Source: Tomocerus qinae
Lineage: Eukaryota; Arthropoda; Collembola; Entomobryomorpha; Tomoceridae
Direction: 5' to 3'
NCBI GenBank assembly: GCA_020055645.1
Contig: CM034546.1
Coordinates: 68,386,001 to 68,450,000, forward strand
Length of the DNA: 64,000 nucleotides
The notes below the pieces were generated by a model. That model was not told where the DNA came from, searched no databases, and worked only from the letters and a program-made list of their open reading frames with translations. The position numbers were made by a program, and so were the translations under genes. Shown one piece after another: positions 1,656 through 38,665 of this stretch; positions within the stretch are counted from its first letter, which is position 1, and every line of letters starts with the position of its first letter.

Positions 1656-3193
1656 GCACAAGAAAGCCTCAATTAAGCATTTAGTCTCAGATATCTCATG
1701 GAATTTAAATAAGAAATTTGAAATAATATGTTACCTGACTGATTGAATGAATCGAAAGAAGTTTGAATTTTGCAGAATTCTAAGAATTATTCTTGGTGAT
1801 ATACAGGTATTCGTTTGACGGGACTTTGACTAGACAGACTTAGATTTGGATAAGAACCTACAAACAGAAATATAAATCTTATGAAATGTCCACATTTATA
1901 CTTATTAATTTACAACATAAATATGCAATGATCCGTGACAATGATAAATAAATAAATATTTAACTGAGCATTTTCAATGAATTAATTTTTCATAGTGCAA
2001 TTATTACACCCAATTTACCGTTTAGTCATCAGCCTTCAACAAATCCGGTCAGCAGTCAACGGAAAGCTGTTTGTTAAGTCAGCAATTTCAAATTTATTTC
2101 ATTCGCATATAAAAGTTTTCAAACGCTTTCTAATGTTGCACTATTAACTGTTGAACTGCTTAGCTCTCGATTGGATTGGTAAATGTTTAAAGTTGAAAGA
2201 GATTGAAATGGCACATGTAAAATGTAAAACTTGTGTTTTTTAGTGTAAGAGACACTTTATAATATTATAACTTAACTCTCCCGCAAACATCTATGACAAG
2301 AAGTCCAGCTGTTCTCACAGTATACAGCTTCTCATTAAAGCACTTTCCTTTGTTTACCTGACCACGTGTAATGACAGTAGTGACATTGTAACCTGTAACA
2401 TGCAAATGCATGGAATTTTAGGCTAAAAATAGGCTCAAAACAAAAAATAATATAAATAAATCTAGCAGAAATTACCAATTTCTCGCACATTTAAAACCCA
2501 AGGTTTTAAGCATGTGTCATGAAAGTGAAAGCTTCAGAAAACATTAATAAATCAGATTAATTAATTCCAACTGTTAAAGATCTGTATAGGTAAACACCAA
2601 CAAAAATCAATTTGCATTAAAATTTTTTGGGCGTGTCATATTTGACTTGTCATATTGTAATTTATTTAATTTAATGTACTTGTCTATATTACCAGTTTCT
2701 ATTTGATTCTTCAAGCCACAAAACGATGCAAAATGGTTATTGAAACCCAACCCAATTGTGCAAATGTTATGTTTACATTTACAAAGGTACTGTTATCAAA
2801 GGAAATAAAACTGTATACAAATTAGAAATTTATATATACGTCGCTGATTCCGTGACAACTCACATAAGCAAATCATCATTCACCCAATTATATCAAGTCT
2901 AGAACGATAATTAGAACTTGATAACACTAACCATATTATACTTAATTACAAAAGCCAGGAAGCGGATAAAAATATTGCCTTTTGAGTTATTAATTAACAT
3001 AGACGAAATATTAATTAAAAACGTTAATTTGCATACTTACCATAGGCTATAATATTGGGTTTTATCTAGCCTTGGGATGTTTTAGTTTGTTATTGGATAG
3101 GCAATTAAATGATTTTTTAATTTTAAAGTTTTCAAGTTTACAAATAAAATAAAATTGAAGAAGCAAAAAGGTAACCACACACAGTTAAGAAAA
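1656..3193. other. AT-rich spacer upstream of the gustatory receptor pair
   Basis: No credible exon, RNA gene or transposon end seen. It presumably contains the promoter of the first receptor gene, but no TATA box stands out. Confidence 0.5.
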
Positions 3194-4633
3194 ATGCTAC
3201 CCTGGACAATTGACAACGTTGAGACGAACTTTTTGCACATTAGCAAATGGGCATTTCTGTCAGTGCGATTTCAGGGCTATTGGCCATTCCAGATTGTTAA
3301 TCTAAAGAAGGGCCTGATTGGTTATGGAAAAACAGCATCTCTCAGTTTTACCTTTCCAAGTTTCCCAGCGGCTTGGCTTTGTGTTCAGGTTTTACTTGAC
3401 ATTTACATGGGCATCTTTTATACCAGTCGAAACTGCTGTCAGTTAGAAAAATCTTCCGACGGCCACAGTCCTAGTCCGTCTGCTTCGGTGGAAATGGCCT
3501 TAATGGTCATAATGTTAATTACATTGTCATGCGGATTAATCTTTTTCAAAATCACGGGGCTATTAAACGCTAAAAGAAATTTGCAATTTTGGAAGGAAAC
3601 CGTTTTTCTTTACAAAATTATTTTAAAAACTGGGATCGTCTTTGAAAATTCTGAATCCAGTAATTTTTTTGAAAATCTTCTAATTCAAATAAGAAATATG
3701 ATTATTCTTTCCATATTCGGCACTTTTGTGAATACATCGGTGCTGCTTTCATGGTACATTCTCCAAAAAATACCCCCTTTGCTTTTTTACTTTGTTTTCT
3801 CAACCGCTTTGATTTGGTGCGTTAAATGTAGTTTCCATGCCACTCACTCCGTGTGGTTGTTTTTCTTTATGAAATTGTATTCTCAAGCATTTGAAATTGT
3901 TGCTCGTGAAATTAAGAATGCAGAATTATACCCCAAAAAGACGAAAGAAATGGAACAAGCATTTCTTCGTGGGCTTCTTGCTATTTACTATGAAACAGAA
4001 AAGCAAACGAAAAAATTCAGTGACATTTTTGGATATAAGATATTGCTGGAATTTCTATTTTGTATTCTGTCTCTTCTGTATTCAACCATTGCTTCATTCA
4101 CATCATACAGCAATTCCAAACAAGGAAGCCTGCCGCTGCTTATTTATGGTCTTCTGCTATTGTCCATGTACTTTTTTCAACTTTTCCTTCTCGTTTTCAC
4201 GGCATCGGATATTACAACCAGTGCAAAGTCTATCCAGGAATCCATACAGATTATCTGCTTGGATAGATTTGATACTGACTGCAGGAGAAAGGTATTTAAT
4301 TTTAATTTAATATTTCAAACCTACAAGTTAATATGCATTATGTTATAAAATTGGTTTTGCATTCATTTTGTCAATTTAATAGATTAAAATGATAGCTTCG
4401 AAGTTGGAAAATGATCCACCAGCAATATCAGTGGCTGGATTTTTTATTCTGAGACGCAGTATTCTTATTTCGGTTAGCAGCATCCAATTGAATAGTCAAA
4501 ATGTTTATGCTTTGTTTATTTAATGAAGTTACCAAATAAATATAATTATCGTCGTTTTAAAGTCGTTTTGGTTTTATTGCAGGTGGGAAGCGTCCTTATA
4601 ACCTATATAATTGTCCTAGTCCAGTTTCGATAA
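3194..4633 (+). CDS. Gustatory receptor-like seven-transmembrane protein, copy 1
   Basis: Predicted chemoreceptor of the insect gustatory receptor superfamily, a ligand-gated plasma-membrane cation channel in sensory neurons. Three exons join in phase 0: 3194-4291, 4383-4472 and 4583-4633, giving about 412 residues, the usual family length. Several hydrophobic segments are visible. The last exon encodes the family's C-terminal signature in the last membrane segment (TYIIVLVQF, of the TYhhhhhQF type). The start is the Met of MLPWTIDNVETNF, shared with the neighbouring copy; the frame is open further upstream but without an ATG. The family, intron phases and C-terminus are clear. The ligand is unknown. 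Confidence 0.88.
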
Positions 4634-5319
4634 AAGGAATATCACTAAAGTTCAACCTTAATTACCTTAAGAAATCATTTTTAAAGTACCATTTTCAGGT
4701 ACAGTTTGGGATATCAAATTGTTTAAATAACTGCAGTAATTATCATTCAAACATTTTCGTTAAGTCGGAATCTATTTAGGAATGAAAATGTTCATTGTAA
4801 TAAATATTGTAGTATTTGTTTAGTTGGGAAGAATGTCGCGATAGATTAGTGTACCTTATTACATTTGGAGTTTTAGAAAAAATGACCAAGTAAACAACTA
4901 ATTAACCAAATGCATTAGTACCGGTAATGTTGACAAAGGGCAGATACTACCTACAGGTACTAGTTGCGTGATATAGAGCAATTGGCAATAGAAATTACTA
5001 AGCTGTGGCCTAAATTTGTTGTGATTACTGATTACCTAAAAGGCAGCTAAACAGCTAAAGTATTTCTTTCATTTTAGTTTGCAAACTGAGAACGACCACT
5101 TGCCATTAATATACACCCAATATAGTATTTTAGTTCTTTAACAGTTTAAAATATTTATCTCAAAAAATTACAGCAGTGTAACATAATTTAAATGAAGATC
5201 ATAGAAATTTTTGAATTTATTGTCTTCTTCAATTGGTTACTAAAATTGTGTCACAATAACCAAATAAAATAATATATTCCAATATTGTTAACCAGACGAA
5301 CTGAAAAACGTGTTGGAAA

Positions 5320-7181
5320 ATGTTACCATGGACTATTGACAATGTGGAGACAAATTTCCTAATAATTAGCAAATGGGCATTTCGAGGTATGAAGTTTCAA
5401 GGCTACTGGCCATACGAAGTTATTCGATCTAACCGCGGCTGCATTATCAACAATAAAGCCCAAGCTTTGATTTCCAATTTGAAAACGTATACATTAGTGT
5501 GGGTATTATTTCAATCTTTGTTGGACATTTACATGTTTATTTATTACAATTATATTTTTTGCATTGAAATTGGATTCAAAAAGTATCCATTGGGGAGAAT
5601 GTTATGTATAATCTTATTGCTAGTCATTTTGTGGTCTGGTCATTTAACTTTCAAAATAACAGGAGTTTTAAATGCAGAAAAAAATTTACAATTTTGGAGG
5701 GAAACAGTTTTCCTTTACAAAAACATAATTAAAATGGGTGTTAACTTTGAAAATTCGGAATCGATTCAGTTTTTTAAATGCCTTGAAAAAAATGTCAAGA
5801 ATAAAGTCATACTTTGTATTTTGGCAGCATTTCTTGGCTCGTTTGCAATAGTCTTGCACGACTATTACGCTCTAAAATATTCATTAGAGACGGATCTGTG
5901 TGCATATATAAGCTCCGTTTTATGGTGTATTAAATACTTTATCCATGCGACTCACACCGTTTGGTTAGTTTTCTTCATGAAATTGTATTGCCACGCCTTT
6001 GGGATTATTGCAGCGGAATTAAAAAACCTAGAGTTCATTTGTAAAAAGAATAGAGATCAAGAACAAAAATTCCTGCACGAACTGCTCGCCATTTATTACG
6101 ATACAGAAATGCAAACAAGAAAATTCAGTGACCTTTTTGGATACAAACTGCTATTTGAAATACTTTTTTGCATGATGAACGCTTTGTACACAACAGTCGC
6201 TGCCTTAACATCCTTTGCCAATTTACAACATGAGAGTGTCACTTTATTCGTATACAACTTTGTGGTCACCTTTTGGTGTACCTTTGTATTGATTCTCCTC
6301 ATCTTCACTGCTTCAGATGTCACAACAAATTCCAAATCCATTTTAGACTCTATGAGATGCATTTCCCTTGATAGGTTTGACGCTGATACTCGAAGAAAGG
6401 TAATTGTAATTTTTACAGATTGTGATAAATACAAAAATAGGAGATTGAGGATAATTTGTTTTGAAAAATTTAATTGTCCATCTAATTTCTTTTTGATTAC
6501 ATATAGTTGAAGATGGTGACTTCTAAATTGCAATATGATCCTCCATCAATATCTGTTGCTGGATTTTTCATGTTAAGGCGTAATGTTTTGATTTCGGTAC
6601 AGTAATTGAATAATTTTTACAAATTACTATTAGGTGTGGTATAAAATTGGAAGAAAATTGTCATTTCATATAGTAACTGATTGAGAGCCAAAGTATGATG
6701 GAAAAATAAACTATTTTTATATATTTTAGTGCAATAACACTAAGACTCTTGTGTCAAATGCAAACACTTATCGATTCCAATCCTTAAAATATAACAGGAA
6801 TTTTAAAAACATAAAAATAAGTACTTTAATTTAATTTATTTCTTCAAGGTTATTAAATAATCTACTTGAGAAGTAATCATAATATTAATAACAGGAGAAA
6901 TTGGCTCATTAACAAATTATGACTGTGAATATGTTGGATTAATAGATTTTCAACTTCATGAAAATTTCAAAAAAATCTTATTTACTTGATTTAAACTATA
7001 TCGATAAACATTGCCTCAATTACATAGATGAAGTAAATAAATTACTTAGGTAACTCGAATCAATGATATGTCTAGGTATGTCAATACTATATTTTAATTA
7101 TTACAGGTGGGGAGCGTTTTCATAACTTATCTCATCGTTCTAACCCAGTTTTCTAATAATTCTCAAAAAACGGAAGTATGA
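5320..7181 (+). CDS. Gustatory receptor-like seven-transmembrane protein, copy 2
   Basis: Tandem paralog of the gene at 3194-4633, same strand, about 690 bp downstream. Exons 5320-6399, 6507-6596 and 7107-7181 all join in phase 0 and give about 414 residues. It begins with the same MLPWTIDNVETNF word and shares the blocks RKFSDLFGYK and SLDRFDADTRRK (copy 1: KKFSDIFGYK and LDRFDTDCRRK). The last exon carries TYLIVLTQF, the gustatory receptor C-terminal motif. Exon 2 is exactly 90 bp in both genes, so the pair arose by local duplication after the intron structure was set. Both copies look intact. Confidence 0.88.
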
Positions 7182-7382
7182 AGATAGACTGCCTATTAAT
7201 GTGTCTCGGTAACCTGCTAACTGTTACTTGTTACTACTCTTTAGACCGGTCGTACAACCTACCTATATGTTCTTCTATAAAATCAGCAAATGAAAATGGA
7301 AGGGAAATTTGCTATGGGAAATTGTATACCATTGTAGTTGCTGCATACAATGGTAGCGTGTCACTGTCAAAGTACGGGAGAC

Positions 7383-7794
7383 CAGTGTTGTGCAGTGGTT
7401 AAAACCACTAGTGGTCATAATGGTCATAATGGTCAAAATGGCCCGGTCAAAAAAAACTAAAAAGTGGTCAAAATGGTCAAAATGGACAAAATGCCTGTTT
7501 GGGGTTAATTGAGACCCCAAGGTAGCTTTTACTGCAACAGTAAACAACAAATACAACTTTCTAAAGATTGCAGTTAAAAATGATTAGAGAGTGTCATTCT
7601 GTAGTCTGATGTTAGTAGAATAGTGTTTCATTGGTTTTAGGCCATATTTCATTCTCTAAATATTTTAAATTTCATTTGCTAGCCTAAGTAACTGTATACT
7701 GATATTTTGACCATTTTAGCCATTTTGACCATTTTGGCCATTTTGACCAGTGGCCCGGTCAAAATGCAAAAAAGTGGTCAACAGTACAACACTG
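7383..7794. mobile_element. hAT-like miniature element, 412 bp, 8-bp target duplication
   Basis: Ends CAGTGTTGT and ACAACACTG are inverted. The flanking octamer CGGGAGAC is repeated exactly at 7375-7382 and 7795-7802. The interior is made of GGTCAAAATGG-type words on both strands. The 8-bp duplication and CAGTG ends fit non-autonomous hAT elements. No transposase is encoded. The word structure resembles the element at 25153 (GGTAAAAATGG words), suggesting related families. Confidence 0.85.
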
Positions 7795-8281
7795 CGGGAG
7801 ACTAATAGACTACCTGCATGGAAAGTCATTTACGACAATTAGTATATAAAAATCGCATACTTTTACTCATACCGGAGAAAAGCACAATAAATGTTTGGAA
7901 AAAACACATACATTACTATAGTAAAACAGACTGTAGTAAAGTATTTGCCAATTCAAACAATTTAAAATTCATGGACGCATTCATACAGGAGATTAACCAT
8001 TTATATGCAGTTATTGTTCATTGTTTTGCTGCACTACTTTTAGTTCTTAAGATACACCATGGCATGGGTAGTCATTATGCCCTGTACTTCAATAGCATAT
8101 CAATAGCTGTTGTAACTATAGCTCGAAAAATTAATAGAAGTAAATGTTAACGAACAGTTGAGGATTTTTTGTACGTTGGTGACCGAGCCATGGTTCGGTA
8201 ATTATGCAAAAATATAAAATTAATCTTGCAAGAATAATATTATACGAAATGTTGATGTTTTTAATCAGACATAATATTATG

Positions 8282-11200
8282 TTACGCATTTACAGTCACA
8301 GCCAAAGAGAAAATCGCGTTTACATTGATTGGAAAGAATTTTGATTTCAAGCTCTCGAGTTTCTCTAGATTTGAGTCTTGCAGTACAGTATAGAGTACAG
8401 GAATCAGAGCTGGAAAACGATCTGTAAAATACATTATATATTTTTCATCTGATTTTCCAAAGACGTCGTCCTCCTTTAAAGAATCATCCCACTCACGTTT
8501 ATGCTGGTATTTGTCTCTAATGAACTCAACTAATTTCATTGTGGAATCTGCACTGTAATCCTTTTTATACTTCAAAAGTAAACCTTTCACTTTTGGACAC
8601 AATTTATCCTGCCAGTTACCAATGTTAAAGAAGGTATTCATATGGATGTCAATTTTATTTCTTATGACCTCTATTTCCTGATTTGTCAAACTACTTTGCG
8701 AATTAGTTTTTGCAACAGCGAGTGAATTACTAACTGTGTGTATGAAATCCAGCTGGGTTTTCCCATCCCAGAAATAGGGATGCTCTAATACACATCCAAT
8801 ATTTGGACGATGAGTTGGATCTTTTTCCATCATTTGACTAAGTAGATTTTTTAGTGCAATTTCGGAGTCTTTTAAAAGTTGCCAAGTAGGTGGCTTTTCA
8901 ACTATATTTGACAGTCTCTTCATCCGACTCCCAAACGGGTGATTTCCCCCTGAGAGTGAATAGAACATGGTAGCTCCTAAAGAAAAGACATCTACACCTG
9001 GTGTAGTTTTGAACTTTGTCTCCTTATCTAATGCAATTAATCCCTCTGGGGACATCCAGTCAGAAGTGCCTTTTCCAAGGGAGTTTGTTCCATCAGTTAT
9101 TGAAGTCAGCTTCCGACTATGGCCGAAATCAACTAACTTTGCCACTGAGGAATTGCCCTCTTGGAAAATTACTATATTGGTAGGTTTTATGTCCCTATGC
9201 AGGATGTTATTGCGGTGGAGCCAACCTAAACCTCTACAAGCATCTAGTACATATTTCTTGATAGCCTCTAAAGGCGTATCGACAAAGCCTTTAACTTTTT
9301 TATCCACACATTGCTCTAAAGTGCACTTGCCTAGCTCCATTGCAAAATAATAGTGAGACTTAAAACTTTCACTAGCAAAATATCTTACAACGTTTATATG
9401 GTTATCAACGTCTCTTAAAATATCTATTTCCCTTTCAAATAAATCTATTGAATTTAGATCTAACTTCTTTACTGCAGCTGTTCTTGATTCAACTTCAAAG
9501 TAGCCTCTATAAACAGTGGATGTTGCTCCACGACCTAATTCTTGATCATCAAAGTAGTAAATACTACTTTTTTCAAGCACACGGATTACAGGATCTAGGT
9601 CGTCCTGTCTTTTGGTAATTGCCGACATATTTGCTTCCACTCCTTTTGTATCTAAAGTGAAATTTAACATTTATTTTAAAACAAATAAATCGATTGGACA
9701 AGAATTAATCATTTAATGTGTAGTTAGTATTTATGGACATTTAGTGTGCATCCGCTTTATTACCTTCTGTAGTTGAGCCATGCTGATTTTCAAAAGGTTG
9801 ATTATCTCTGGCAATAAAATTTTAAATATTAATGCTTATAGTTATAGAACTACGTTATGAAACTGTAGTACTCAAAAATATCAAAAATATTATATGGAAG
9901 TCCCCCAGAGCCGTCCCGCCCTGGAGGGCGGACCTAGGGGACATCTCTATCTAGATGTCCCCCAGAGCCGCCCGCCTGTCATATTTGTAGACCAAGTCAT
10001 GCGGGCGGGCGGCTCTGGGGGACTTTACAGCCGCCCGGACGGCGCTAGAGGACATCACATCTAAATAGAGAAGTCCTTCAGAGGCGGCTTCCCGGGCAGC
10101 TGTTGAGTTCTCCAATTCCGCCCGCCCGCTTGACTTGGTCACCAAATATGACGGGCAGGCGGCGCTGGGGGACTTGTTGATTGAATGTGAATTTTTTGCA
10201 TTGTAACTATTATTTGTAGATTCAAGAATACTAATAGCCACAATCAATATCATTGCATATTAAAATTATGTCGATATTTGTTATTTACTTACCCCTTTGC
10301 TTCGATTTTTTTAACATTAGGTCCGCGTTCTTCTGTATTTGAAAGGCTGGTTACGATATCTGTCCCTGGAATTACTGGGGATGGTTCGACTGCTCTGCTG
10401 GACTTTTTGGACACCTTTAACATCCCTTTCTCAACCAATTCCTCACGAATATTGACAAAAAGGCTCTGAATTTCTTCGTCGGCAAACATCTCATAAGGAA
10501 TGAGTTTATAAGTGAGAAAACCTTTCACACTCAGAATCTTATTTAAAACGACATCCTCATTTTCTCTGCTGTTGTGACGAATCACTTGCTGTAATATCGT
10601 GTTGATACTACATGATTCTATATTTCCATCTGGGTTTAAATGAGTTGTTATCAGAGAGTATTTCTCAAGCAATTCGATTGCCTCTCGTGTTTGCAAATCT
10701 GATATGTTTTCGATTGTTTCAAATAACTTGAGTTCCACCAAATCGGGTTTAAGATAGCCCAAAAGAAGTAAAATATTTTGTGCTGCTTTTTCAGTGTCGG
10801 ATTCATGATTGTTAATGGCGTCCAGAGATATTTTCATTGTCTGGTTGATAGTCTTTTCGTAGTCATCGAATTTCTGAGTAATGATGTGATCAGTTTTCGT
10901 AATTCTTTCAATATACTTGGTTACAGATAATTGCTTTGTATTTATTGTAGTGACTGCAATTTGTAAAGCCAAGGGAAGATTTCCGAGGAGAATGCTCAAT
11001 TCTTCTACCTGTTCTTCTCTATAACGTTTATCCTTCAAGTTCATCGTCAAGAAATCAATGCTGACCTTTGTAGGAAATTCAGTAAGATGCATTACAGGAA
11101 TCTCTCCATCTCCTGACTCAGTTCCCCATTCTCTAGTCCTCGATGTAATTATGGTGTGGAAGTTGTCGTGCTTTGGAAGAACATCACGTATTCCATGTAG

Positions 11201-12049
11201 ACCTTGATAATATTCTGCGTTGTCAAAAATAAAAAGACATTTAGATTTTTCCAACTTAGAAAAACATGTTCTGGATAATTGATTGATTCGAAGCGACTGA
11301 TCAACTTTTAACTCTTTGGCCAATTCCTTGAAAGAGGTCGAAATATTTCCTTCGCCGCTATCTATCCAAATGATGTGGTCATAAAACTCTTGAAACTCAG
11401 TAGCAAACCACTTTGCCATTGTCGTTTTCCCTACGCCTCCCATTCCGGAGATGGTGGCTCCTTTATTGATAACTCTGGATTTGGTTTCGCTCGACATCAT
11501 GCACTCTTCTAAAATGGCAACTAATTTCTTATCTCCTTCTTTTCTTTCCAAAAACGTTGGTGGAAGTTTCTTTTCTTCTGGCCACCATTTTGACTCGAGA
11601 ATTTTTATGGTCTTCGGGCCTTTAGAATTTGGTATTAGTTCTTTACGTAGACCAATCGACTGATTGTTAACATTCCAACTTATTATGGCATCAGCGCAAT
11701 GTTGATTTGATGTTTCTTGCAAAGCTAGGATGAAACTTGGTTTTATTTTTTCCCAGGCCCAGGTTTTTTTCATTACAATGTCAAAAAATCGACCATTTCG
11801 ATCTAGTGATGTTTCACCCGCCATCTAAATCAGCAGCCACGATAAAATTACAATCTATACTTCTTGATAATTACTAGGTTGACAGTAAATTACTTTTACA
11901 AATAAAATTTAAAAAAATTCTTCACTCACAATCCGTTCCGTCTCATCATTTGTGACGATATCATTTTGTCGACAGTGAATTAAAATCAAGTTTAGATTAG
12001 TCAAATTTTTCACAAGAAAAACTAAATTATCCTTTATTTCTTCAACCAT
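8282..12049 (-). CDS. CARD-NB-ARC-kinase-KEN ribonuclease fusion protein
   Basis: Four exons with matching phases: 12049-11930 (phase 0), 11824-10293 (ends phase 2), 9807-9764 (44 nt, phase 2 to 1) and 9651-8282, giving about 1021 residues. Residues 1-95 look like a CARD (NDIVTNDETERI, SLDRNGRFFDIV). NB-ARC follows: P-loop GMGGVGKTT near 167-175, Walker B FIFD near 238, SRTRE near 268, GNLPLAL near 321. The kinase has G-loop LGRGATSTVY, Lys near 627, HRDIKPTN near 717 and DFG near 740, so it is probably active. A KEN domain (about 856-1000) has FFNIGNWQDKL and IRDKYQH. Known families: Apaf-1/NLR ATPases oligomerise; IRE1 and RNase L kinase-KEN dimers cut RNA. Inferred job: a signal-driven oligomer that activates RNA cleavage. 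There is no luminal or membrane segment, so it is cytosolic and not a true IRE1. The IRE1 catalytic Asn position is Asp here. Confidence 0.82.
9898..10175. repeat. GC-rich foldback element inside the intron of the NB-ARC/KEN gene
   Basis: The ends AAGTCCCCCAGAGCCG and CGGCGCTGGGGGACTT are inverted repeats, and internal arms (GCCCGCC and GGCGGGC words) fold again. It sits in the intron between exons 2 and 3 (10292-9808) of the fusion gene and leaves both splice sites untouched. I could not establish a target duplication. Confidence 0.75.
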
Positions 12050-13855
12050 ATTGCACTAATTTGTGCAGATGATGACAATCCTTTCAATTCATTCAAACAG
12101 TGGATGGTACTCTAAGTATCTCTAAACATAATAGTCATGTGATTATTAGTAAAACATTGATGACATAATCTTTCAGTACGGTAAGGTTACTTATTGGGAG
12201 ATTTCTTTTATTTAAAATAAATATTAATTTTAAAGTTTTTTTTAAATATCTAAATTTTATATTATTTCAATAAAAAAATGCTAAATGAAGTGATATGTAT
12301 AGTTATGATTTTAGTTTTCACTGGAAAATAGTTGCAAAATATTTCAAACCCCAAGCCTGCCGAATGTAATAATATCACCCATACTGAATGTGTGGATATT
12401 GTAATCTGAATTATCCAATAACCATATTAACATGGTCAGAAAATTTAGGGTCTGATTATTATGATTTAAAGTCAGATTACTTTATGGTAATGGATGATTT
12501 CCCTCACGCAAGGATAAAAATGCATTCCAAATTGGTAACGTTCTAACAAAACGTATAAAAATATTATGCACTTGCCTACTATATATTAAATACCTGTAAT
12601 AAAAAGCAAATGTTCCACCATGACACGAGTCCTTATTCCTTATAGAAATTCAAGATAAAAGTAGCATTATGTAGATTACAGGGTCTACAAACTCTAGTTT
12701 GTATGTTGAGTTTTGTCAAAAAGGATACACCAAGCTCTTCATTTTGAAGAACCAACAGCAATAAAATAATTTAATGGGAAAAATTAAATTTCTGTTTCTG
12801 AAATAATGTAATTCTGACTTTTAATTGGTAATTCGGTAATCTGACTTTTTTCACATTTAATTTGACTTTCAATAAATATCTGTAGTTACTTATTAAACGT
12901 GGTTGTGTATATCTGTGTGCGTTAATAGTACTTAACCATAGTGACAGTGACAAGTTCTAATCGATGTTGGTCCTCATGGTTTCTGATAAGGATGTTCCAC
13001 ATTTGTTTATCATTTTATCATTTAATTATTCGTTAACCTCTAATGATTTAAACATGTAAATAATACTCGTGATATCAAATAATCATAATCATAAAGTACG
13101 GGATAAACGGTTACACAACAATTATATGCTTTAATAATACATCCCCTGTCGGAGAACTGTACATACCATCATTGGAAAGATTTGAAAGCATACAACTTAA
13201 TATGTACTAATATAAATAATATAAAAAGAGTTAAAGGTAAATAAAGTAACGTCATGTTCATGTCTTATGAAGTTCAATGCACTCTCTATAACAGACGCGA
13301 AAGTCATAGTCATAACGTATAACATAGAGTTAGCTACAAAGCACGTAAGATACACTACACAGTGGTAATCAGTTATAAAATTAAATGCAGACGTATCCAG
13401 AGAAACAGTTTTTGGGTCCACTGTGGTTATTCGGTTTTAAAATATTATTTAAATATTATTGTCCTACATAGTGGTATAAACAAAGATACAAGAATTCAAG
13501 GAAAAGGTATGTACAGGGGTTAAAAGATAACATACTAATAAAAACTGCAACAATTATAATAAGCTATAAATGTATTTGGTTATTCTTCAGTCAGATTTTT
13601 CAGCGAAACTGATTTTTATTCAATAAATTAATTCAAAAAATTATTAATTAAGTGAATACTTTCCTTCTATGCATTTTGTTTTACATTGCATAGAAGGGTA
13701 ATGGTAAAATAGATACCTAATATATCTTGTTCATTTAGTTTCCTTATTCCTTATTGTTCAATTGTTGGCTGCAATCGTCTCACGAAGTTTATTTTCGTGG
13801 GCGCCAGAGAATTGGGTAACCTTAAATGTCATCATATTATTTATATTATTATAAA
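12050..13855. other. AT-rich spacer, no gene seen
   Basis: Scattered short open frames on both strands lack domain-like composition or neighbouring splice signals. The promoter of the CARD/NB-ARC/KEN gene should lie at its left end, just beyond 12049. A small inverted repeat (CTTCTATGCA and TGCATAGAAG) lies at 13664-13696. Confidence 0.5.
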
Positions 13856-14410
13856 TTATTTTTGGCGATTTATTTCAATACAAAAGTTTTTGGGAGTAAG
13901 GTTCCTCGGGGATATGGCAATACCCCTCAGTACTCGTGCTCCCAGCGCTCGTCGCCATCGCCAGTCCCCACAGAATAAATGGGCCAAAAAATATTTTATG
14001 CCTATCAGAAATACATTGCGACCTAATTTTCCTAATTCTATCATTGACATATCTGGCTAAACACTAAAAAATTTATCACTGCCGAATTTGATAATAAAAG
14101 TTGATGGCATTATCCCGGATAACGCATAGCAACTTTCTGACAGGGAAATGTCGATAAAAAGTATTAATTTTTTAAATTGAAAGATTTTTAACACACTCGG
14201 TGCCAACTAACTCAAAAATGATTGACGTTCTCCGGCTTGTAAAAAATAATCTTTATTGTTAGTAAAATTAGGCCACCCTCTTTAAGTCAATGGCGAGCAC
14301 TAGTTATAGGGAGATTATTATAGGGAGTTGATTATTATTTGGCCCTGAACATATTATATTATTACTTATTAATATTTGAGTTATTTTAAATAATTGTGAA
14401 GTATTTATAC

Positions 14411-14942
14411 AGTGTGGTTCTGATATAATAGGCGAGTGTTTGACCACTTTAGTATTACGAGTGTTTAATCTTATAGGTGATATTATGCGTAACGCTCTAA
14501 TCTGTGGTCGTCGTTCTGTTGTGCATTTGATGAGAGTTTGCCAATTTGGGGGTTAAATGAAATCAAACGGTAATGAATGTCATTGAATTCCCTCTCTAAG
14601 CTTTGTTCCTGTAATACTCAAATAATATGCATGCTACTTACAGCAAAAACTAGGTAGATCACTTCTTTCTCTTTCGAATGATGTGCATCTTGTTTAGATT
14701 AAACTTCTCCTTGGTAAGTTATTGACGCTCAAAGTGAGAAGAAATCGATGAAATTGCACATTTTACAAAAATATTTTCTCCCCGACCTTGGAAATTGATA
14801 CAGATATTTGGTATGCATATCTTTATAACAGTTCGCTCACACTGAGTTTATTTTTAAAATGATCTATATCTTGTTAAAATTGACCAAGCCGTTTAAAAGT
14901 TATTCCAGGTCAAACACTCGCTTATTATATTAGAACCACCCT
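14411..14942. mobile_element. Miniature inverted-repeat element in a thioredoxin intron
   Basis: Terminal inverted repeats of about 36 bp: left CAGTGTGGTTCTGATATAAT, right ATTATATTAGAACCACCCTG, followed inward by GCGAGTGTTTGACC and its complement. The interior is non-coding. The right end lies only about 18 bp inside the intron that begins after thioredoxin exon 3 (donor at 14960-14955). The target duplication is not clear, so the superfamily is undecided. Confidence 0.75.
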
Positions 14943-19702: not shown

Positions 19703-22094
19703 GTTTGAAAATTTATTTTGATCTTCCACATAATTACTTGGATAATGTCAAATTAGGTACTATTAATATTTACTGCATACTTCAATAGCTTTCATAGTTT
19801 TCAATGTTTGTAGATATAATTAACTCGGTTACGGTATGGCAACGAATTAAAATAAACACTTTTAAAATGTATGGTGTTACTTTACTTACAGTCTAGATTT
19901 TGTATGGAAATGTGATACAATAAATTAACAACGTGTTGATTTCGTCATCGTAAAACATATTTAGTTAATTTGCAAAAATTAAATCAACATATTTAGTATG
20001 TTAGTGTCAATAACATTTAAAGTAAGTAGGTGTAATAGCTACTAGCTACTCAAATGCTAATATTAGTAATCAGGGCTAATTTATGGAGTAAATATAGCAT
20101 TCTTATAGTCAAATCAAAGAATACAATGTAGGATTGAGATCGACATTGAGAGGGCAAAGTCAATGCTACAATGCTAGAGTATGATCTAATTTATATACAG
20201 GTGAATAGACATTATCCATGTCCTTTTCCGCTCCAAAATAACAAAGTAATTATTACTATTATTAAATACGTCAATGATTTAAGTTTTTTTATCGTTGAAA
20301 GTCTTCAGCTAGCTCAAAAGTAAATTAATGTTGAGTGAACTATGTGCGATTATTTCATCATATTGGGAATTTTGTGTACTTGACATACGATCATTGCTGT
20401 AGGGTTTTACTTATTTTATTTTATTCCAAAATGATTATGGATATCAGCATAGAGAGGAAAACGGTGAATAAATAAAAGTTTATGGCATCGACGAAACAGG
20501 TTGACGGCCAAGTCAATAGCATTGTATTTGAGTATCAATCGGAAATGCAATACAAGATTACTTAACGAAGAATCTGAGTTGTATATGAACCGTTTTCATC
20601 CCTTCTTTAGTGTGCAGGCTCCTATGCATTTATCATATGTCAATTTGAAAACAGATATTTTGGCAAACAAAAATTGTCAAATTGTGTTCAAAAGATGGTA
20701 AAATTGGCAAAACCGTTTTTACACTAGAATGATGGTTTGGCAAAATGTACAAACGGATAATGTAACAAAAATGTATAATAATTATTAGTACTTCTTCTTA
20801 CAAGAAATCTTTTTCACTTTAAATTAAACTGGCAGTTTATTTCAGGAATTGAATTAAAGTACTTTTCGCAAATATAACAAGCATCTTTGATACGAATAAG
20901 TATTCCTGCTGTTAACAAGGTGGAAATATAAATGCTAGTCATCCTAGTTCCTCTTCCCAAAATTCGTTTTGCCAATTTACCAATTTTGACCTATAGCTCT
21001 GGCTTTATTTTTTATTGCTTTCAATCTTTTTTAAACATCACTTTAGTAGCATGCTAAATATAGAAAAGTGATTTGTTGTAAAGATGTAAGCTGCTTATTG
21101 TGTCTTTCCATTAACTTGTCTGATTTCTGTTTTACTAACGAAACCTGTTTCCCCATTCGCTTCATTAATAATATCTGGAAGGATTTTGTTTTTGTCCTTG
21201 CCCGAAAGCCAAAATAGTCGTGCCAAAAAACCTTAATTTTAATCTTGTTTTTCAACCGGGTCAGTGAACGAGTTGTGTCATTACATTTTTTATTTATATA
21301 ATAAAATTTAACTTGTATAAAAATGCAATTGGTTTTTATCTCTCAAAATGATAATAATTGGTACCTAGATTACATTGATAATATTGATAATGTTTTGCTA
21401 TGCTATTACTATCGGTCCATAGTCCAAGGCAAAAGCGTATCTAGAAATTGGATCTAGGGGGTGATAATTTCCAAAAATGAATCAAAATATTATAACTGCA
21501 CACAATGTATTGGTAAAAACAAAAAAAAATCGCGCCAGGCGCGACAAACTTTATGATTTTTTATCTTCTTTGACAAAATAATCCCCTTTATGTTGTATAT
21601 TTAGGAGGGGCAGTACCCCTTCTAAATACGTGATTTATCTGTCATCACCCACTCAGTTTTCTGCAAAAGTTTTAAGGCGTTTTAACCAGAAAAAGCTCAT
21701 TTAGGTACGACCAAATTTCCATTTCTGTAACCGTAATAATACGATAATCTCCAGCCCTGAGGTTCAATATAGCGAAGAAAGGATTCGAAAATACTCAAAC
21801 AGATTCGAAAATTCTCAAACAGATTCGAAAATTCTCAAACAGATTCAGAAATGGTCGAAAATAAGATACATGCAATTGATGTCATACGAAACTAAAATTA
21901 TGTTTCTTCCTATTTGGAATTATATATATTTCGTTTCGGTAAAAATACGATAATATCTAGTGTTTTCAAAATATTTATTGAGTGCTTAAGTACCCTAGCA
22001 CCCGACTAAATACGCCCATGACTATCACTTTGACCAGAATAAAAATGGCTATTTTAAATTTTAGGTGAACCGAATCCTCTGGAATTAATTTAAA
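19703..22094. other. Spacer with duplicated blocks
   Basis: 19800-20230 recurs around 58430-59080. The block at about 20260-20770 (word TTTATGGCATCGACGAAACA) recurs at about 26640, 50140, 59140 and 60240, forming the 5' spacer of desaturase copies. A 21-bp tandem repeat (GATTCGAAAATTCTCAAACA) runs through about 21780-21850. No gene is seen. Confidence 0.7.
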
Positions 22095-24048
22095 ATGTCA
22101 TTAAGCACAGACATAATGGCAATTTTTGAAAAAGAGACCAATGCATTAAGTAAAAAGGAAATAGTGTCATCCTCATTTCCTGCCATAAATGTGTCTTCAA
22201 ATGGAAATATTTACGATGTCGATGAAAAAGAAATAAATATCTACGCCACTGACTACCCGCTTCCCAAGTACATCTGGCACGCGGGGACATTCTTCCTTAT
22301 TTTACACATCATGGGCCTTTACGGTATTTTTGTCATTGCAACCGGTCAAGCAATGTGGCAAACAATTTTATGGGGTAATACCGCTATATATTTAAATAAA
22401 TCAATTTCCTTTATTGTAAACGAAGAAAAATAGGAAGCCGCAAAAACTGTCAAGTTTGTGGTCCCAAATAGTATCCCTAAAATACATAATTAGCAACAAC
22501 CTACTTAATGCCTAAACATTTTGAAATTCAGTTACAGTACTGAGGTTTATTATTAATAAATCTATATAATATATTCTTAGTTTCGGTCTTCCATGCAATC
22601 GGACAGTTGGGAGCATTGGCTGGTGGTCATCGACTTTGGTCACACAGATCATACAAAGCTAAATTTCCCTTAAGATTGTTTTTAATGATTGCACAGACTA
22701 TATCTGGTCAGGTAAGCAAAGATACAGTAACCAAATTAAAAATTTGCAAATCTTTTTGAAATAATGATCCCATTTAAATATAACATTCAAGAATTATTAT
22801 TTTTATAGAAAACGTAGCTTTTATTTGGCAGTTAAAATGTTTCTAACCAATTAAAAATTTATTCTTGCCATTTTAATTTCTCTCGAGTCTTTAGAAAAAG
22901 TATGCGAAAGGTTGTAAACAATTGGCAACAATTTTTTAGTTATCGATATACAACTGGGTCCGTGATCATCGAACTCATCATAAATACACGGAAACGTTGG
23001 CTGATCCTCATAATGCTCGCAGGGGATTTTGCTTTTCCCACATCGGTTGGCTCTTTCAAAAAACGCATCCGGCTGTTTTGTTAAAAGGAAATACAATTGA
23101 CATGTCGGATGTTGAAGCGGATTCTCTAGTCATGTTCCAAAAAAAGTTAATAATACAAAATTCACTAACTGTAGAATAACCGAACGACATTTTAATAAGA
23201 AAAGTAAAAACCGCCTAATTTATGTTATTGTTTCAGATATTATTTACCATTCGTCGGAGTGATAAATTACGTATTGCTTTCCGTTGTTCCTTGTCTTTGG
23301 GGAGAAACGTTAATTTTGGGGATTTTACTCAATGCGTTAAGATCCATGTATACTCTTAATTGCACATCTCTCATCAACAGTGCGGCCCACTTAATTGGCA
23401 ATCGACCTTACGATAAGTAAATTTTATATTTTTATCCCGACCATCAATATCAAAAAGAGTGGGCTTAAGGGATAAAATTACTTATTTCAGAGCCATTCAA
23501 TAATTTCGGATACTAACAAAATACAAATTGCTTAGCTTCGCTTTGCTTTACTATTTAACTATTACTGTAATAGTTAAATAGTAAGCATATTTTAATCGAC
23601 ATTATGTAATAGTATTACATAATGTCGATTAAAATAAGAGACATCATAGGTTGTGTCAATAACGGTAATATTTACCTATTTTTTCAGATCAATTTTTGCA
23701 ACGCAAAACAAATTAGTTTCCATATTGAGTTTTGGCGAAGGAGCACACAATTTTCATCATACTTTTCCATGGGATTACAAGGAAGACGAACATGGAGGAT
23801 ACATGTATAACTTCTCCACAGCGTTTATTGATCTGATGGCCAAGATAGGCCAAGCCTACGATTTGAAAATTGTCCCGAAGCATATCGTGGAGCAAAGGGT
23901 CCTCAGGACAGGCGACGGTTCCCATCCAATCCATCAACACCAATCTCAACAACACATTGTGGCAGGTCCTTATGCCTGGGGAGACAAAGATATTCCACAG
24001 GAAGATATTGATGCAACCGAGATTATTTATAGGAAGAATAATATGTAG
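22095..24048 (+). CDS. Acyl-CoA Delta9-desaturase, copy 1 (intact)
   Basis: Membrane di-iron enzyme of the endoplasmic reticulum that inserts a cis double bond into saturated acyl-CoA, using cytochrome b5. Five exons (22095-22374, 22581-22711, 22940-23145, 23237-23416, 23688-24048) join in phases 1, 0, 2 and 2 to give 385 residues. All three histidine boxes are present: GGHRLWSH (exon 2), VRDHRTHHKYTET (exon 3) and GEGAHNFHH (exon 5), with NSAAHLIGNRPYDK in exon 4. The first membrane span lies in exon 1 (FLILHIMGLYGIF). This is the only copy in the window with every exon open. A splice acceptor just before the start (TTTTAG at 22058-22063) suggests a 5' untranslated exon. Confidence 0.93.
23549..23636. 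repeat. Two adjacent near-perfect palindromes in desaturase copy 1 intron 4
   Basis: 23549-23585 folds as TACTATTTAACTATTACTG with its complement. 23590-23636 folds as ATTTTAATCGACATTATGTA with its complement. Copies 2 and 3 have only one arm, so the palindromes arose after the gene duplications. Confidence 0.8.
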
Positions 24049-27000
24049 TATCGCAGTAGATACAGGTTACAGATTTCTTTCCACAAGCATTTTGATTAAT
24101 ATATCAGGAAGGACCCAATCTGTGTAAAGTGTCTGAAATCATCAAACTGTATAATATAATCGTTGTCTTTTGTAACGTATGGCGTTGGCTCTAATGTGTA
24201 TAGCCTAAACAGGCATCTATTTAGAAGAAGGAGAAGGAAAAGACGCAGCACCCCCTTACCTTGAGAAGAGGAAATTCTTTCTGTCAAAATAGGTTTAAAG
24301 CCTTTATTGTTAAACATTTATTGTTACACGTTAAACAACATACAATAAAAGACATGGGAGTTTAATTTTAGTAAAGAGAAATTCAAACCATGGTGATGGT
24401 GTAACGGGCTATTCAATCAGCTCCTATCCTATTCTAACACATGTATTCTATCCTCCTTTCCGTCCCAAGAACTCCTTACCAAAGTAACTTTACCTGGGAC
24501 TGGGAATCAACTCCTCAGTTCTTGTCGGAAGTCCAGCTAACAACAACTACTAACTAGTCTCTTACCTTTCCTATCTTATTCGGCATAACCTATTCTTCCT
24601 ACAGTTACTTACTTGCTAGTAAATGTTCAGTCTAATACTAATACACTCGAGTACATTCAACATTTATTGCAAACATACAAACACACATTCACATCATTCC
24701 ATGATTTATACAATTTCCTATCTAAATAGATTCATCTAGAATTGATGCAGGAACCGGCATAGCTTCGTCAAAAGTAAGGGCAGGCCTAACAAAGGGGCCC
24801 TAGCTATTATAATGGTCTAATAGTGCAATCGTTGGAATACAATCAACGATTTGGCTTGAGTTGTGGTTAGGGAATTTAAAAAGAATTATCAACTCAAATA
24901 CAAAGTTTCAACTTGCCCTAATATGGATTCCACGCACAACAGATACGTACATAAAATAATTTATTAAATAAAACCAAATATATGTACAGGGTAACAAAAA
25001 TAATTACTTGGGAAATATTTGTGGGAAAATAAATATTGCTTGAGAGTCCCATTGGCTTCGCATCTTTAAATGAAAAGTATATTCCGGTATCTCTAGTCCT
25101 CATTTTTTTAAAAAGTGTTTATTGCATCACGTAATAGATATTATGATCCATCCAGTGTACAAAATTTACCACTTTTTAGCCTTTTTTACCATCACAGTGG
25201 TAAAAATGCACTTAATGGTAAAAATGCATTTAATGGTAAAAATGGTAAAATTTAGCGATTGATTAGACAGCTGTGTACAGATACATTAGACTTCCTAAAA
25301 TATAAGTTTTAAATCTTTATTTTCTGTGAAATATTTCCAATTAACACCTTAATCAATTAAATTAATCATATTTATTTGATTGTACACCAAAAGTTATAAA
25401 AAAATGAAGAAAGAAAGATTGTATTTGGTATCGCCCATTTAAAATTGATGCTAATTTAACTACAATTAATTTCTCAATCGGTAATGGTTGTTAGTGTCCC
25501 CATCGGTTGAATCCTACTCTGATTGATGAACACTTATCAATTTGTGACAACAATGATCATCTGCTAAGCTATTTCATACTTTGGCACCGAATTTTATTCA
25601 AAATTCCAACACGAAATTTAAATGAAACTATTTTTTACCATTTTTACCATTTATACCACTTACCACTACTTTTTAGGTAGTGGTATTTAACGTTAAATAC
25701 CATTAAAAACCACTTACCACTGGTAAGTGGTAAATGGTATTTTGTACACTGGATCCATCAAATCTTTGGCGACGACTATTTCATTTCGAAGTTTGTAAAC
25801 TTCATGGTATCAGGTATGCCCATCTTTGGCTCTATGATCTATTCTGGAATGTTTTATTTATGCATTTTGGATATGTGTGGGAAAAGGTATTGTTATATTC
25901 CATCTATAAAACTAGTTACAACCAATTCAAAAAAAACTGACGTCGCTGGGAAATATTAATAAGGTAACTTTATTGGGTTTTTTGAATTTACATTCATTAC
26001 ACAGTATAATCAAATTATATAATATTGTCTACTAGATATATCTATTCCAATTTCTCTCTTATTAACTATTATCATTACTTCACATAATTAATTTAGCTAC
26101 TAAGTTGTATCAAATTACCGTTTTTAGGTTTAGGATTTTACATGGTCCCGAAATTGTTACTATACATTTTTATCTTATACTCGACGGTGAATTGGCCACC
26201 TTACTCATTTCTGAACCATGCACGAAACTTCAATGGTTGTGCAAAATAAGTATAAATATTATATAATACCGTTTTATCATCTGACTCAAGGTGAGTATAT
26301 AAGTCATTTTTACTACTTAAACACTTTACAAACGTATTATCTCTAATAGCTTTGAACGGTTGACAATTACACACAAAATGGTCTAAACTCTCGAGCTCTT
26401 CATTTTCGTTGTAACATGTACTGGGTAATGTTAATAGTATGATCCTAATTACTAATCTAAATCATCTTTTTCCAAAAGACGTGACGTGTAGTTTTTTCAT
26501 CTCCTAGCAAGACGGTGGCAGTTGAATAATATTATGCGAACTTAATTCAAATTGCATTAGTACCATAAAATTCAAATTAATTGACCAGGATGAACCATTA
26601 TTTCAATGATATCATTTATGAAAAAAATAAATCAGTTAAGATTTGTTTATCGTTGAAAGTCTTCATATAGCTCAATCAAAAGTAAATTAATGTTGACTGA
26701 ATCATGTGTGACTATTTCATCATATTATTACGAATTTTATGTACTTAAAGTATAATCATTGCTGTAGGGTTTTGCTTCTTTTATTTTATTCCAAAATATT
26801 TATGGATATCAGCAATGAGAGGAAAAGTGTTGATAAATAAACGTTTATGGCATCGACGAAACAGGTTCACAGCCAAATCAATAGCATTATCATTGAGTGA
26901 TTGAGTATCAATCAGAAATGCAATACGTGATTATTTTATTTTACGATGAATCTGAGATGGATATGAATCGTTTACATCCCTTCTATAATATTTAGGCTCC

Positions 27001-28336
27001 TATGTATTTATCGAAATATGTCAGTTTAAAAACATATTTTGGCAAACAAAAATTGGGATGGATAAATTGGCAAAGCGTTTTTACACTAGAACGATGGTTT
27101 GGCAAAATGTACAAACAGAAAATTTAAGAAAACATACAACAGTTTTGCCAATATGCCAATTTTCACCTATAACACTGGTTTTATTGCTTTTAATCTTTAT
27201 TAAACAAATTTTTTAGCATGCTAAATATAAAAGTAGTTCATTTTAATCATCTAAGCTGCAGTTGCCCATAACAACTATACTCAAATGGAATTATTATTAC
27301 CAATTCCTTATTTCCTACCTTTTTTCGTTTATTTAAGGGTGCATGAGGTGAATGATGTTTGTTTCATTTATTATTTTTCCCTTTCCCCTGCCATATATAC
27401 AAACCGTTAATTCTGAAGATGTTAGTCCATTGATATTACTATACTGATCACTCAAATAAGATTGTACGTCCTGATTCTTCCTATAAAATATATACTCATC
27501 GCAATATCTCTAAAAAATTTTAAAATTTTCTTCTCTGTTAAATTGTATTAATTGTTTTTGCATAACCAATTTGTTGTTATTAGTCTGAAATCAAATAGAT
27601 AATAGAATTCCGTATAACTGTTTAGCGACTTGAAATTCAGAAAAATAATCGTTAATCCTACTCTTTTGATTGGGGAAGTAAAAGTAAGGTGAAGTTGTTA
27701 TCTAAGAAGCTTCAAATTTTTGAAGCATTTACTCAAAGCAGAAGCATTTCCTAAATTTTAACAAAATGTGGCATTTACTTGCATCCTGCATTTATCAAAT
27801 ACTTTTACTCTTAAATTAAGCATAATAATATGCGAAAGTAGATAATACTTTTATTCATACCAAAAGAGCGTTTTACTTCAAAAACAAAAACAGTCAGAAA
27901 AATATTGCATTTTTGTGTTGTTTTTTAACGAATTTTTAACCCTTGAAAAAACCTCCCCCTTTTCTATGCCACTCAGGGTGTTTCTCTAGCTACTTGTCTG
28001 AATTCTATATTATTAACGGAACCTGTTTCCCTATTCGCTATATTAATAATATCTGACAGGATTTTCGTACCAAAAAGCCTTAAAACCATTCATCTACTTT
28101 TTCAGTTTGCTCAGTGAATAAGTTGTGTCATTACATTTCTTGATTTATATAATGAAATCATTGGTATAGTAAATAAAAAATGCAATTGGTTTTTATCTCT
28201 CAAAATAATAATAACTGGTATCGAGGTTACATTTGAGATTGATAATGTTTTGTTATGTTATTGATATTACTTTCACCAGAATAAAAATGGCTATTTTTAA
28301 TTATAGGTGAACAAAATCTTCTGGAACTGATTTAAA
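24049..28336. other. Spacer between desaturase copies 1 and 2
   Basis: 24050-24330 repeats downstream of copies 2 and 3 (48654 and 54149). The segments at 24340 and 24811-25120 repeat at about 49300 and 54690. Between them, about 24399-24808 is an insertion absent from the other copies. 25153-25751 is a miniature element. 26640-28336 is the 5' spacer shared with copies 3 and 5. No independent gene is seen. Confidence 0.7.
25153..25751. mobile_element. hAT-like miniature element, 599 bp, 8-bp target duplication
   Basis: Ends CAGTGTACAAAAT and ATTTTGTACACTG are inverted. The octamer GATCCATC flanks it on both sides (25145-25152, 25752-25759). A second, nearly identical copy is at 57482-58071. 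Non-coding, with GGTAAAAATGG words near both ends. Confidence 0.9.
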
Positions 28337-30639: not shown

Positions 30640-30827
30640 AGTAGTATATAATTATAACTGTTTATCGTACCAATCATTATAACCCGGCAGAGGGTAAAAA
30701 TGATTGGCATGACAAGTGCACGGAGTCCAAGATGGACTCCGTGCACGGCAGAGTAAAGGAGCTCTATGCACGACACTGGCAAGGGCACTTGTCGGTGTTG
30801 TAGCATAAATGAGTTAGGGAGCGCAAA
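30640..30827. repeat. Left terminal inverted repeat of the virus-like element (188 bp)
   Basis: Starts AGTAGTATATAATTATAACT at the target site. It matches the reverse complement of 48311-48498 over its whole length with two mismatches that I can see. It contains an inner hairpin (GTGCACGGAGTCCA and TGGACTCCGTGCAC) and CGGTGTTGTAGC near its inner end. Confidence 0.95.
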
Positions 30828-30932
30828 CTTTTAAAGTTGTTGGGAGGACGAGACCGAAGAGTTGGAGATTGCCAAAAAATTTTTTCAGCAAATTTTTTTT
30901 GAATTGAGAGTTGGTTCTGGCTACGCTTCGAG

Positions 30933-32089: not shown

Positions 32090-32296
32090 TTTAATATTTA
32101 AATGAATTAATGAATTATAATTTAATATTTAAATGAATTGATGAATTAAAATTTTGTATTTAAATGAATGTAGCGAATCAATTAAATTGTTATACCATTA
32201 TGGACTGAACAAATTAATTTTTTACATTTGTTAAAATAAATAAACTGATTTTTCACCAAGTTGTTGTATCCAATCAAGAATTTATTGACTTGCCAA

Positions 32297-34066: not shown

Positions 34067-34070
34067 ATTT

Positions 34071-36076: not shown

Positions 36077-36115
36077 GTTTGCTATTATGATTCTAAAAGA
36101 AGACTGAGACTAATA

Positions 36116-36838: not shown

Positions 36839-36960
36839 TATGATTGCAAATGATGATATCTTAGAAATAATTGTCTTATATGATGAAATGAATGCTAAGT
36901 AGTATACATATATACAAATTCTTTATTTTTTCAAACAGACAAATACACTCATGATATAGA

Positions 36961-37992: not shown

Positions 37993-38050
37993 GTAGCTAC
38001 TCTTACACTGTTAGAAAAAATACACGTGGCATCTAAATGAGGATTTAGAC

Positions 38051-38148: not shown

Positions 38149-38218
38149 CGGTTCTCGTCGGTTGTATTTCTATCATTACCTCTCTGAAAGTTTTAATGGA
38201 AAGATCAAGTAAAATACA

Positions 38219-38625: not shown

Positions 38626-38665
38626 AGTTATATTGGCGAATAAATAAGTTTTCCTCTTTTTTGGC

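What the first reader, a model, noticed from the sequence alone, without database searches (positions are those of the whole stretch)
8282..12049. One gene joins CARD, NB-ARC ATPase, kinase and KEN ribonuclease
Seen: four exons whose donor/acceptor sites and phases (0, 2, 1) fit exactly, including a 44-bp linking exon that only makes sense as a joiner. Known: CARD-NB-ARC is the Apaf-1/NLR core, while kinase-KEN is the RNA-cutting effector of IRE1 and RNase L. Inferred: an oligomerising sensor that turns on RNA decay, a design parallel to RNase L with NB-ARC replacing ankyrin repeats. I know of no described arthropod protein of this design, but cannot search.
Basis: partly seen in the sequence, partly recalled or inferred. 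Interest (0 to 1): 0.92.

Follow-up and report, generated by a model that had tools for sequence, protein, structure and literature searches.

The report
Immune-sensor core fused to RNA-cutting enzyme
In one arthropod genome, a gene from a large family of immune-receptor-like genes appears to have swapped its presumed sensing tail for a kinase and RNA-cutting domain related to the stress enzyme IRE1, giving a possible immune switch that destroys RNA.

Summary
The four minus-strand exons splice GT-AG into 1021 codons with no internal stop; CARD, NB-ARC, kinase and KEN all score above Pfam's cut-offs.

Junction 1 is firmly supported: exon 1 was found in 17 of 18 paralogs checked, and all 17 have ATG, 40 codons, then GTAAGT or GTAAGC. 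The joint between the NB-ARC and kinase halves is likely but lacks transcript proof.

New context: exon 2 matches 84 places in this genome, itself and its duplicate included. In 14 of the 18 closest relatives the frame runs on for 948 to 1439 codons; one modelled relative has an Apaf-1/NLR-like fold with an LRR-like tail. The window gene has a kinase-KEN in place of that tail. KEN matches fall in six loci; only this locus and its 99%-identical duplicate have CARD-NB-ARC within the stretches read.

Best reading: a STAND oligomeriser joined to an IRE1-type effector, so NB-ARC assembly would switch on kinase and RNase. Activity and trigger are inferred. Rating: new variant of a known kind.

The parts
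11930..12049 (-). Exon 1: start codon and first 40 codons, N-terminal half of the CARD
   Evidence: 17 of 18 paralogs checked carry a homologous 40-codon exon 1
11690..12037 (-). CARD (fused residues 5-85), interrupted by intron 1 (11929-11825)
   Evidence: Pfam CARD 3.9e-8 on the joined protein, 6.8e-10 on the N-terminal 90 aa
10293..11824 (-). Exon 2: rest of CARD, NB-ARC, region after it (winged helix by analogy), short non-homologous tail
   Evidence: homologous to the paralog family up to fused residue about 528 at most
10820..11455 (-). NB-ARC (residues 164-375); Walker A GMGGVGKT 167-174, Walker B CLFIFDN 236-242, TIITSRT 264-270, NLPLAL 322-327
   Evidence: Pfam 1.8e-10; motif positions; motif names recalled
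10595..10603 (-). Degenerate MHD-like motif, residues 448-450: IHRLLQQ of the family reads INTILQQ here and in the duplicate
   Evidence: H, R, L invariant in 18 of 18 paralogs and also present in L034 and P0121; motif name recalled
9808..10292 (-). Intron 2 with a near-palindromic (MITE-like) insert near 10188-9941
   Evidence: Donor ranks 1 of 178; palindrome
9764..9807 (-). Exon 3, the 44-bp linker that restores frame
   Evidence: only in-frame bridge scoring 0 or more, but 103 of 500 random introns do as well; identical in the duplicate
8282..9651 (-). Exon 4: kinase plus KEN and stop codon; phase-1 acceptor shared with kinase-KEN paralogs L010 and L011
   Evidence: splice sites of L010 and L011 read by eye
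8771..9550 (-). Protein kinase domain (residues 600-859); K627, HRD 717-719, DFG 740-742 present
   Evidence: Pfam 3.2e-43
8360..8755 (-). KEN ribonuclease domain (residues 865-996); Y931, R944, D945, H949
   Evidence: Pfam 8.2e-17; alignment A2

Best explanation
One gene encodes a 1021-residue, probably cytosolic protein, CARD - NB-ARC - winged-helix region - short linker - IRE1-type kinase - KEN. It arose when a member of a large CARD-NB-ARC family with a TPR/LRR-like tail lost that tail and was joined to a kinase-KEN gene without a membrane part. Most likely mechanism (inferred): nucleotide-dependent assembly of the NB-ARC, possibly seeded by CARD contacts with full-length family members, brings kinase-KEN units together; they phosphorylate each other and the paired KEN domains cut RNA, as in IRE1 and RNase L. 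Shown here: domains, exon 1-2 splice (by conservation), family membership of both halves, absence of the tail, excess of silent changes in both halves. Inferred: one transcript, activation by assembly, RNase activity, role in immunity.
For: Open spliced frame and four Pfam domains. Junction 1 conserved in 17 of the 17 paralogs in which exon 1 was found. The exon-2 donor is the best GT in the region and overlaps the stop that would otherwise end the NB-ARC frame. Stand-alone paralogs L010 and L011 enter the kinase exon in phase 1 at the corresponding acceptor from an upstream coding exon, so this exon seems to need a 5' partner; no recognisable copy of their first exon was found in the first 20 kb of the window. 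Between the window gene and its duplicate, silent changes are in excess in both halves: kinase-KEN 11 silent of 22 (P 0.002), exons 1-2 6 silent of 10 (P 0.008). Kinase-KEN dN/dS against L010 is 0.22. The donor-anchored tail of exon 2 resembles the donor end of the kinase gene's own first exon: 7 of 754 other GTAA sites score as high for L010, 18 of 754 for L011. KEN retains Y, R and H.
Against: No transcript evidence. The 44-bp exon is no better than chance allows (103 of 500). The duplicate is no independent witness. Unanchored comparison of the linker region with the kinase gene's first exon is not significant against genomic pieces: 159 of 298 score as high for L010, 289 of 298 for L011; a Markov null gave 6 of 300 and 141 of 300; at protein level 54 and 239 of 500. 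Exon 3 against paralog introns: 35, 118 and 92 of 207 as high. Poly-A-like hexamers lie between the halves at 9761, 9717 and 9675, compatible with an upstream gene ending there. KEN has D where IRE1 has N after the catalytic R, and that position contributes to catalysis (PMC3710099, passages). The MHD-like motif is degenerate. No relative with both NB-ARC and KEN among the rows listed; no hit.
Confidence: 0.75

Rival explanations
1. Two adjacent genes: a truncated CARD-NB-ARC gene ending at the TAA at 10289, and a separate kinase-KEN gene starting at the ATG at 9670 or from an unrecognised first exon.
For: Both frames are intact, and kinase-KEN genes without CARD-NB-ARC exist in this genome (L010, L011). 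The bridge exon is not better than chance. Poly-A-like hexamers lie between the halves.
Against: The NB-ARC frame runs straight into the best donor of the region. L010 and L011 use the corresponding acceptor with an upstream coding exon, and the ATG at 9670 sits before that acceptor with no counterpart in L010. No other first exon was recognised in the first 20 kb of the window, though that exon diverges fast: L010 against L011 only E 0.16 to 0.19 in the same call.
Confidence: 0.17
2. A fused transcript whose product signals through the kinase or as a scaffold, with a weak or dead RNase. (Not exclusive of the single-gene reading.)
For: N to D change next to the catalytic R, shared by L010, L011 and L012; kinase residues intact.
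Against: Y, R and H of the site are kept in all six aligned proteins, and kinase-KEN shows an excess of silent changes. Acceptance of D at this position in other HEPN nucleases is recalled, not tested.
Confidence: 0.3
3. A decaying chimera: a duplicated NLR-type gene broken by fusion and kept by chance.
For: Degenerate MHD-like motif; 12 of 123 family-invariant positions changed.
Against: Silent changes are in excess in both halves between the two copies; the coding differences between them are substitutions only, without gaps, and the long frames are open in both. 111 of 123 invariant positions are kept.
Confidence: 0.08

Closest known systems
IRE1 (ERN1)
   Same: Kinase-KEN order; best PDB matches by sequence (1e-51) and by fold (5e-15, low TM-scores, from a low-confidence model); a probable canonical IRE1 in this genome (L013, by eye) is 37/31% identical in two pieces
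   Different: No lumenal domain in the Pfam scan and no transmembrane-like stretch outside NB-ARC among the top hydropathy windows; CARD-NB-ARC instead; D after the catalytic R
RNase L
   Same: Kinase-KEN behind an oligomerising or sensing N-terminus (recalled)
   Different: No ankyrin repeats in the Pfam scan; kinase residues kept; RNase L details recalled
Apaf-1 / CED-4 / NLR (STAND) proteins
   Same: CARD-NB-ARC order; a paralog model matches Apaf-1 best (6.6e-6), then plant NRC receptors, CED-4, NLRC4
   Different: The window gene lacks the C-terminal TPR/LRR-like part of its own family and has no WD40 hit
HEPN proteins fused to NACHT or death-fold domains in animals (CXorf38, DZIP3 families)
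   Same: An RNase of the same superfamily joined to a STAND ATPase and death-fold domain (PMC3710099, passages)
   Different: Different HEPN families, no kinase mentioned in the passages seen; the KEN row of that paper's table lists kinase, ankyrin, CCCH, UBI and BRCT

Membership tests
NLR / CARD-NB-ARC receptor | N-terminal death-fold domain | tested here: met
   CARD 3.9e-8, above cut-off
NLR / CARD-NB-ARC receptor | NB-ARC or NACHT ATPase with Walker motifs | tested here: met
   NB-ARC 1.8e-10; motifs
NLR / CARD-NB-ARC receptor | C-terminal LRR or similar repeat sensor | tested here: not met
   Absent in the window gene; an LRR-like solenoid is predicted in one modelled paralog
NLR / CARD-NB-ARC receptor | MHD-like motif histidine | tested here: not met
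   H to N at 448, invariant H in 18 of 18 paralogs
IRE1 | Kinase plus KEN in tandem | tested here: met
IRE1 | Lumenal stress sensor and transmembrane helix | tested here: not met
   No such Pfam hit; the five highest 19-residue hydropathy windows, maximum 1.73, all lie inside NB-ARC; no dedicated membrane predictor was run
RNase L | Ankyrin repeats binding 2-5A | tested here: not met
   No ankyrin hit; 2-5A binding not testable
RNase L / IRE1 ribonuclease | Catalytic Y, R, polar residue, H in KEN | tested here: inconclusive
   Y931, R944, H949 kept; N replaced by D945; activity not testable here
Apaf-1 | WD40 repeats after the winged helix | tested here: not met
   No WD40 hit

The most novel reading that the evidence does not exclude
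An arthropod carries a large NLR-type receptor repertoire (84 places match the NB-ARC exon of this gene), and one member has become an executor: its sensor tail was swapped for an IRE1-derived kinase-RNase and its nucleotide lock has loosened, so that sensor relatives recruit it through CARD or NB-ARC contacts and trigger RNA decay. This would be an RNase L-like arm wired to NLRs, with a sensor-helper division like that of plant receptor networks.
Probability: 0.4. Interest if true: 0.9.

Novelty: new variant of a known kind. Interest (0 to 1): 0.82.

Why it matters
Arthropods are usually described (recalled) as lacking NLR receptors beyond Apaf-1 relatives. Here 84 places in one presumed arthropod genome match the NB-ARC exon of this gene, 17 of the 18 closest relatives checked carry the CARD exon, and one member is joined to an RNA-cutting effector whose relatives without CARD-NB-ARC sit elsewhere in the same genome. 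That makes a testable case of how a sensor-effector fusion is born, and links the IRE1/RNase L branch to NB-ARC oligomerisation.

Tried and rejected
Full-length relatives: three protein-database searches. One search listed the best 120 of 391 hits, and no listed row shows both NB-ARC and KEN (the domain lists of some rows are cut). One search gave 29 hits, none with KEN listed. One search, on the KEN end, had 382 candidates and none at E 1 or better.

The 98%-identical copy as a witness for splicing: rejected, its introns are 99.6 to 100% identical.

Exon 3 as a relic of the kinase gene's first exon: not supported. Exon-2 tail as such a relic: suggestive only when anchored at the donor or against a Markov null for L010 (6 of 300), not against genomic pieces.

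Exon-2 tail as a remnant of the paralogs' TPR-like stretch: not significant (185 of 500).

AlphaFold of kinase-KEN: mean pLDDT 54.5 with 6 rows, kinase part about 40, KEN part about 82, so the fold match is weak support. AlphaFold of a paralog: mean 61, residues 611-960 about 83, NB-ARC part poor.

The script stopped with an error after printing the kinase-KEN values; the exon-2 comparison with four other paralogs was not rerun, and the window-duplicate count was done.

Sigma-70 promoter scan: not meaningful for an animal gene, not used.

Counting all NB-ARC and CARD loci by Pfam family: not completed.

Full report
What was checked. The four exons join on the minus strand into 3066 nt, 1021 codons plus stop, with GT-AG at each intron. 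Pfam finds CARD, NB-ARC, protein kinase and Ribonuc_2-5A (KEN) in that order, all above gathering cut-offs, on the joined protein. The CARD match spans junction 1. By sequence, the first 16 rows for the kinase-KEN part in the PDB are IRE1 structures, E from 1e-51 (60 rows shown of 525); the CARD-NB-ARC part has no PDB match at E 0.001.

The genome around it. The window lies in a 334-Mb assembly. A search with the kinase-KEN exon gave 56 matches; the best eight rows fall in six loci and the rest are weaker, kinase-only stretches. The KEN family search (9 of 9 candidates scored, 7 matches) gives the same six loci: the window; a copy 400 kb away at 98% protein identity; three relatives at 56 to 66%, one of them broken by stops; and one at 37/31%. 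The last has a long upstream frame and, by eye, looks like canonical IRE1. A tblastn of the full protein on 9.9-kb stretches found the CARD-NB-ARC half in L009, the near copy, but not in L010, L011, L012 or L013, which hold at least 5 kb upstream of the kinase.

Kinase-KEN relatives without CARD-NB-ARC. L010 and L011 have a short first exon that starts with ATG, and both enter the kinase exon in phase 1 at the acceptor that corresponds to the window's (read by eye). So the kinase exon seems built to follow an upstream exon. No copy of that first exon was recognised in the first 20 kb of the window, but it diverges fast (E 0.16 to 0.19 between L010 and L011 in the same call), so absence is weak evidence.

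The CARD-NB-ARC family. The exon-2 protein matched 90 stretches in the assembly, which I count as 84 places after merging six split matches, the window gene and its duplicate included; 82 of the 84 are on contig C1. Only 84 of 337 first-look candidates were scored, so this is a lower bound. Some matches cover NB-ARC without the CARD part. Twenty loci were returned, two of them the window gene and its duplicate; the other 18 are 56 to 61% identical. Exon 1 was found in 17 of these 18. In all 17 it has ATG, 40 codons, then GTAAGT or GTAAGC, and an AG stands where the window's exon 2 begins. Homology to the window gene stops between fused residues 506 and 528. In 14 of the 18 the frame runs on to 948-1439 codons; in four (L022, L025, L027, L033) it ends at 587-680. 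One fully read relative has 1390 codons in exon 2. Pfam names little in the C-terminal part: weak TPR-like hits, below cut-off, in some of the five relatives scanned, none in the last 890 residues of L035, and summed TPR scores above cut-off in the 2029-codon frame of L034. An AlphaFold model of one relative (13-row alignment, mean pLDDT 61, residues 611-960 about 83) matches Apaf-1 best, then plant NRC receptors, CED-4 and NLRC4, and LRR proteins such as internalin and BRI1, all with low TM-scores. I read the family as NLR-type. A tree of 22 rows joins the window gene and its copy (100/100) on a long branch; their relation to the other members is unresolved.

What changed in the window gene. 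Of 123 positions invariant in the 18 relatives, 111 are kept. Three of the 12 changed ones are consecutive, residues 448-450, where IHRLLQQ reads INTILQQ, also in the duplicate. I take this as the MHD-like motif (recalled name); in other NLRs its loss can loosen the ADP lock (recalled). Kinase residues K627, HRD and DFG are present. In KEN, Y931, R944 and H949 are kept and N is D945; the D is shared with L010, L011 and L012. PMC3710099 (passages seen) says R and H are needed in KEN and the polar residue after R appears to contribute.

Is it one gene? For: the exon-2 donor is the best of 178 GT sites and overlaps the stop; the kinase acceptor is shared with relatives; silent changes between the two copies are in excess in both halves, 11 of 22 in kinase-KEN (P 0.002) and 6 of 10 in exons 1-2 (P 0.008); the donor-anchored exon-2 tail resembles the first-exon donor of L010 (7 of 754 other sites as good) and L011 (18 of 754), while the L010-L011 control gave 0 of 755. 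Against: 103 of 500 random introns offer a bridge exon as good, and the acceptors score low; the same linker comparison without anchoring is not significant against genomic pieces; poly-A-like hexamers lie between the halves; no transcript data. I put one gene at about 0.8.

Mechanism. By established knowledge (recalled), NB-ARC proteins assemble on nucleotide exchange, and IRE1 and RNase L cut RNA when kinase-KEN units pair. The simplest reading is that CARD-NB-ARC assembly pairs the kinase-KEN. The presumed sensor tail is missing, so the trigger is likely another protein, perhaps a full-length relative through CARD or NB-ARC contacts. Every step after the gene model is inference.

Literature. 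Searches for NB-ARC with Collembola and with springtail gave 0 papers each. NLR with Collembola and immune gave one unrelated abstract book. Asking for five of NB-ARC, KEN domain, CARD, kinase, IRE1 and RNase L gave only PMC3710099, which has no occurrence of NB-ARC. Of that paper I saw passages; of PMC10432511, passages. In some searches I saw listings and abstract starts only (1 of 1, 20 of 57, 7 of 8 and 25 of 1,923 papers); nothing listed describes this architecture by its title or abstract start. The library holds open-licence papers only, so this does not show absence from print.

Noticed in passing
window 31457-45502: Cluster of mostly minus-strand ORFs with a P-loop ATPase-like frame (by eye), a weak adenovirus-protease hit (E 0.096), a weak double-jelly-roll hit (E 0.029) and an integrase-core hit (E 1.3e-5), all three below Pfam's cut-offs: looks like a Polinton/Maverick-type element. 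Described only.
   Followed up: partly
window 20254-31000 and 48499-63983: Repeated copies of a gene with a histidine-box motif that looks like acyl-CoA delta-9 desaturase (by eye; repeats, frames; no Pfam hit on two short exons).
   Followed up: partly
window 3113-4345 and 5305-6507 (+): Two related hydrophobic frames of about 400 aa, resembling chemoreceptors by eye; no Pfam hit.
   Followed up: partly
window 4062-14910 and G000:C1:68790500-68800400 (L009): Recent duplication 400 kb apart: 99.2% identity over 6.6 kb upstream of the stop codon but 93% downstream, with about 0.9 kb present only in the window just after the stop.
   Followed up: partly
window 9941-10188: About 250-bp near-palindromic GC-rich insert in intron 2, MITE-like.
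   Followed up: partly
L034 (G000:C1:47904300-47913000): A family member with a 2029-codon frame whose C-terminal TPR/LRR-like half looks duplicated by eye.
   Followed up: no
G000:C1, about 10.43-10.57 Mb and 28-43 Mb: NB-ARC relatives lie close together here; 82 of the 84 places are on one contig, C1.
   Followed up: no
L010, L011, L012: IRE1-like kinase-KEN genes without CARD-NB-ARC or an evident lumenal part in the stretches read, one of them broken: a small extra kinase-KEN family.
   Followed up: partly
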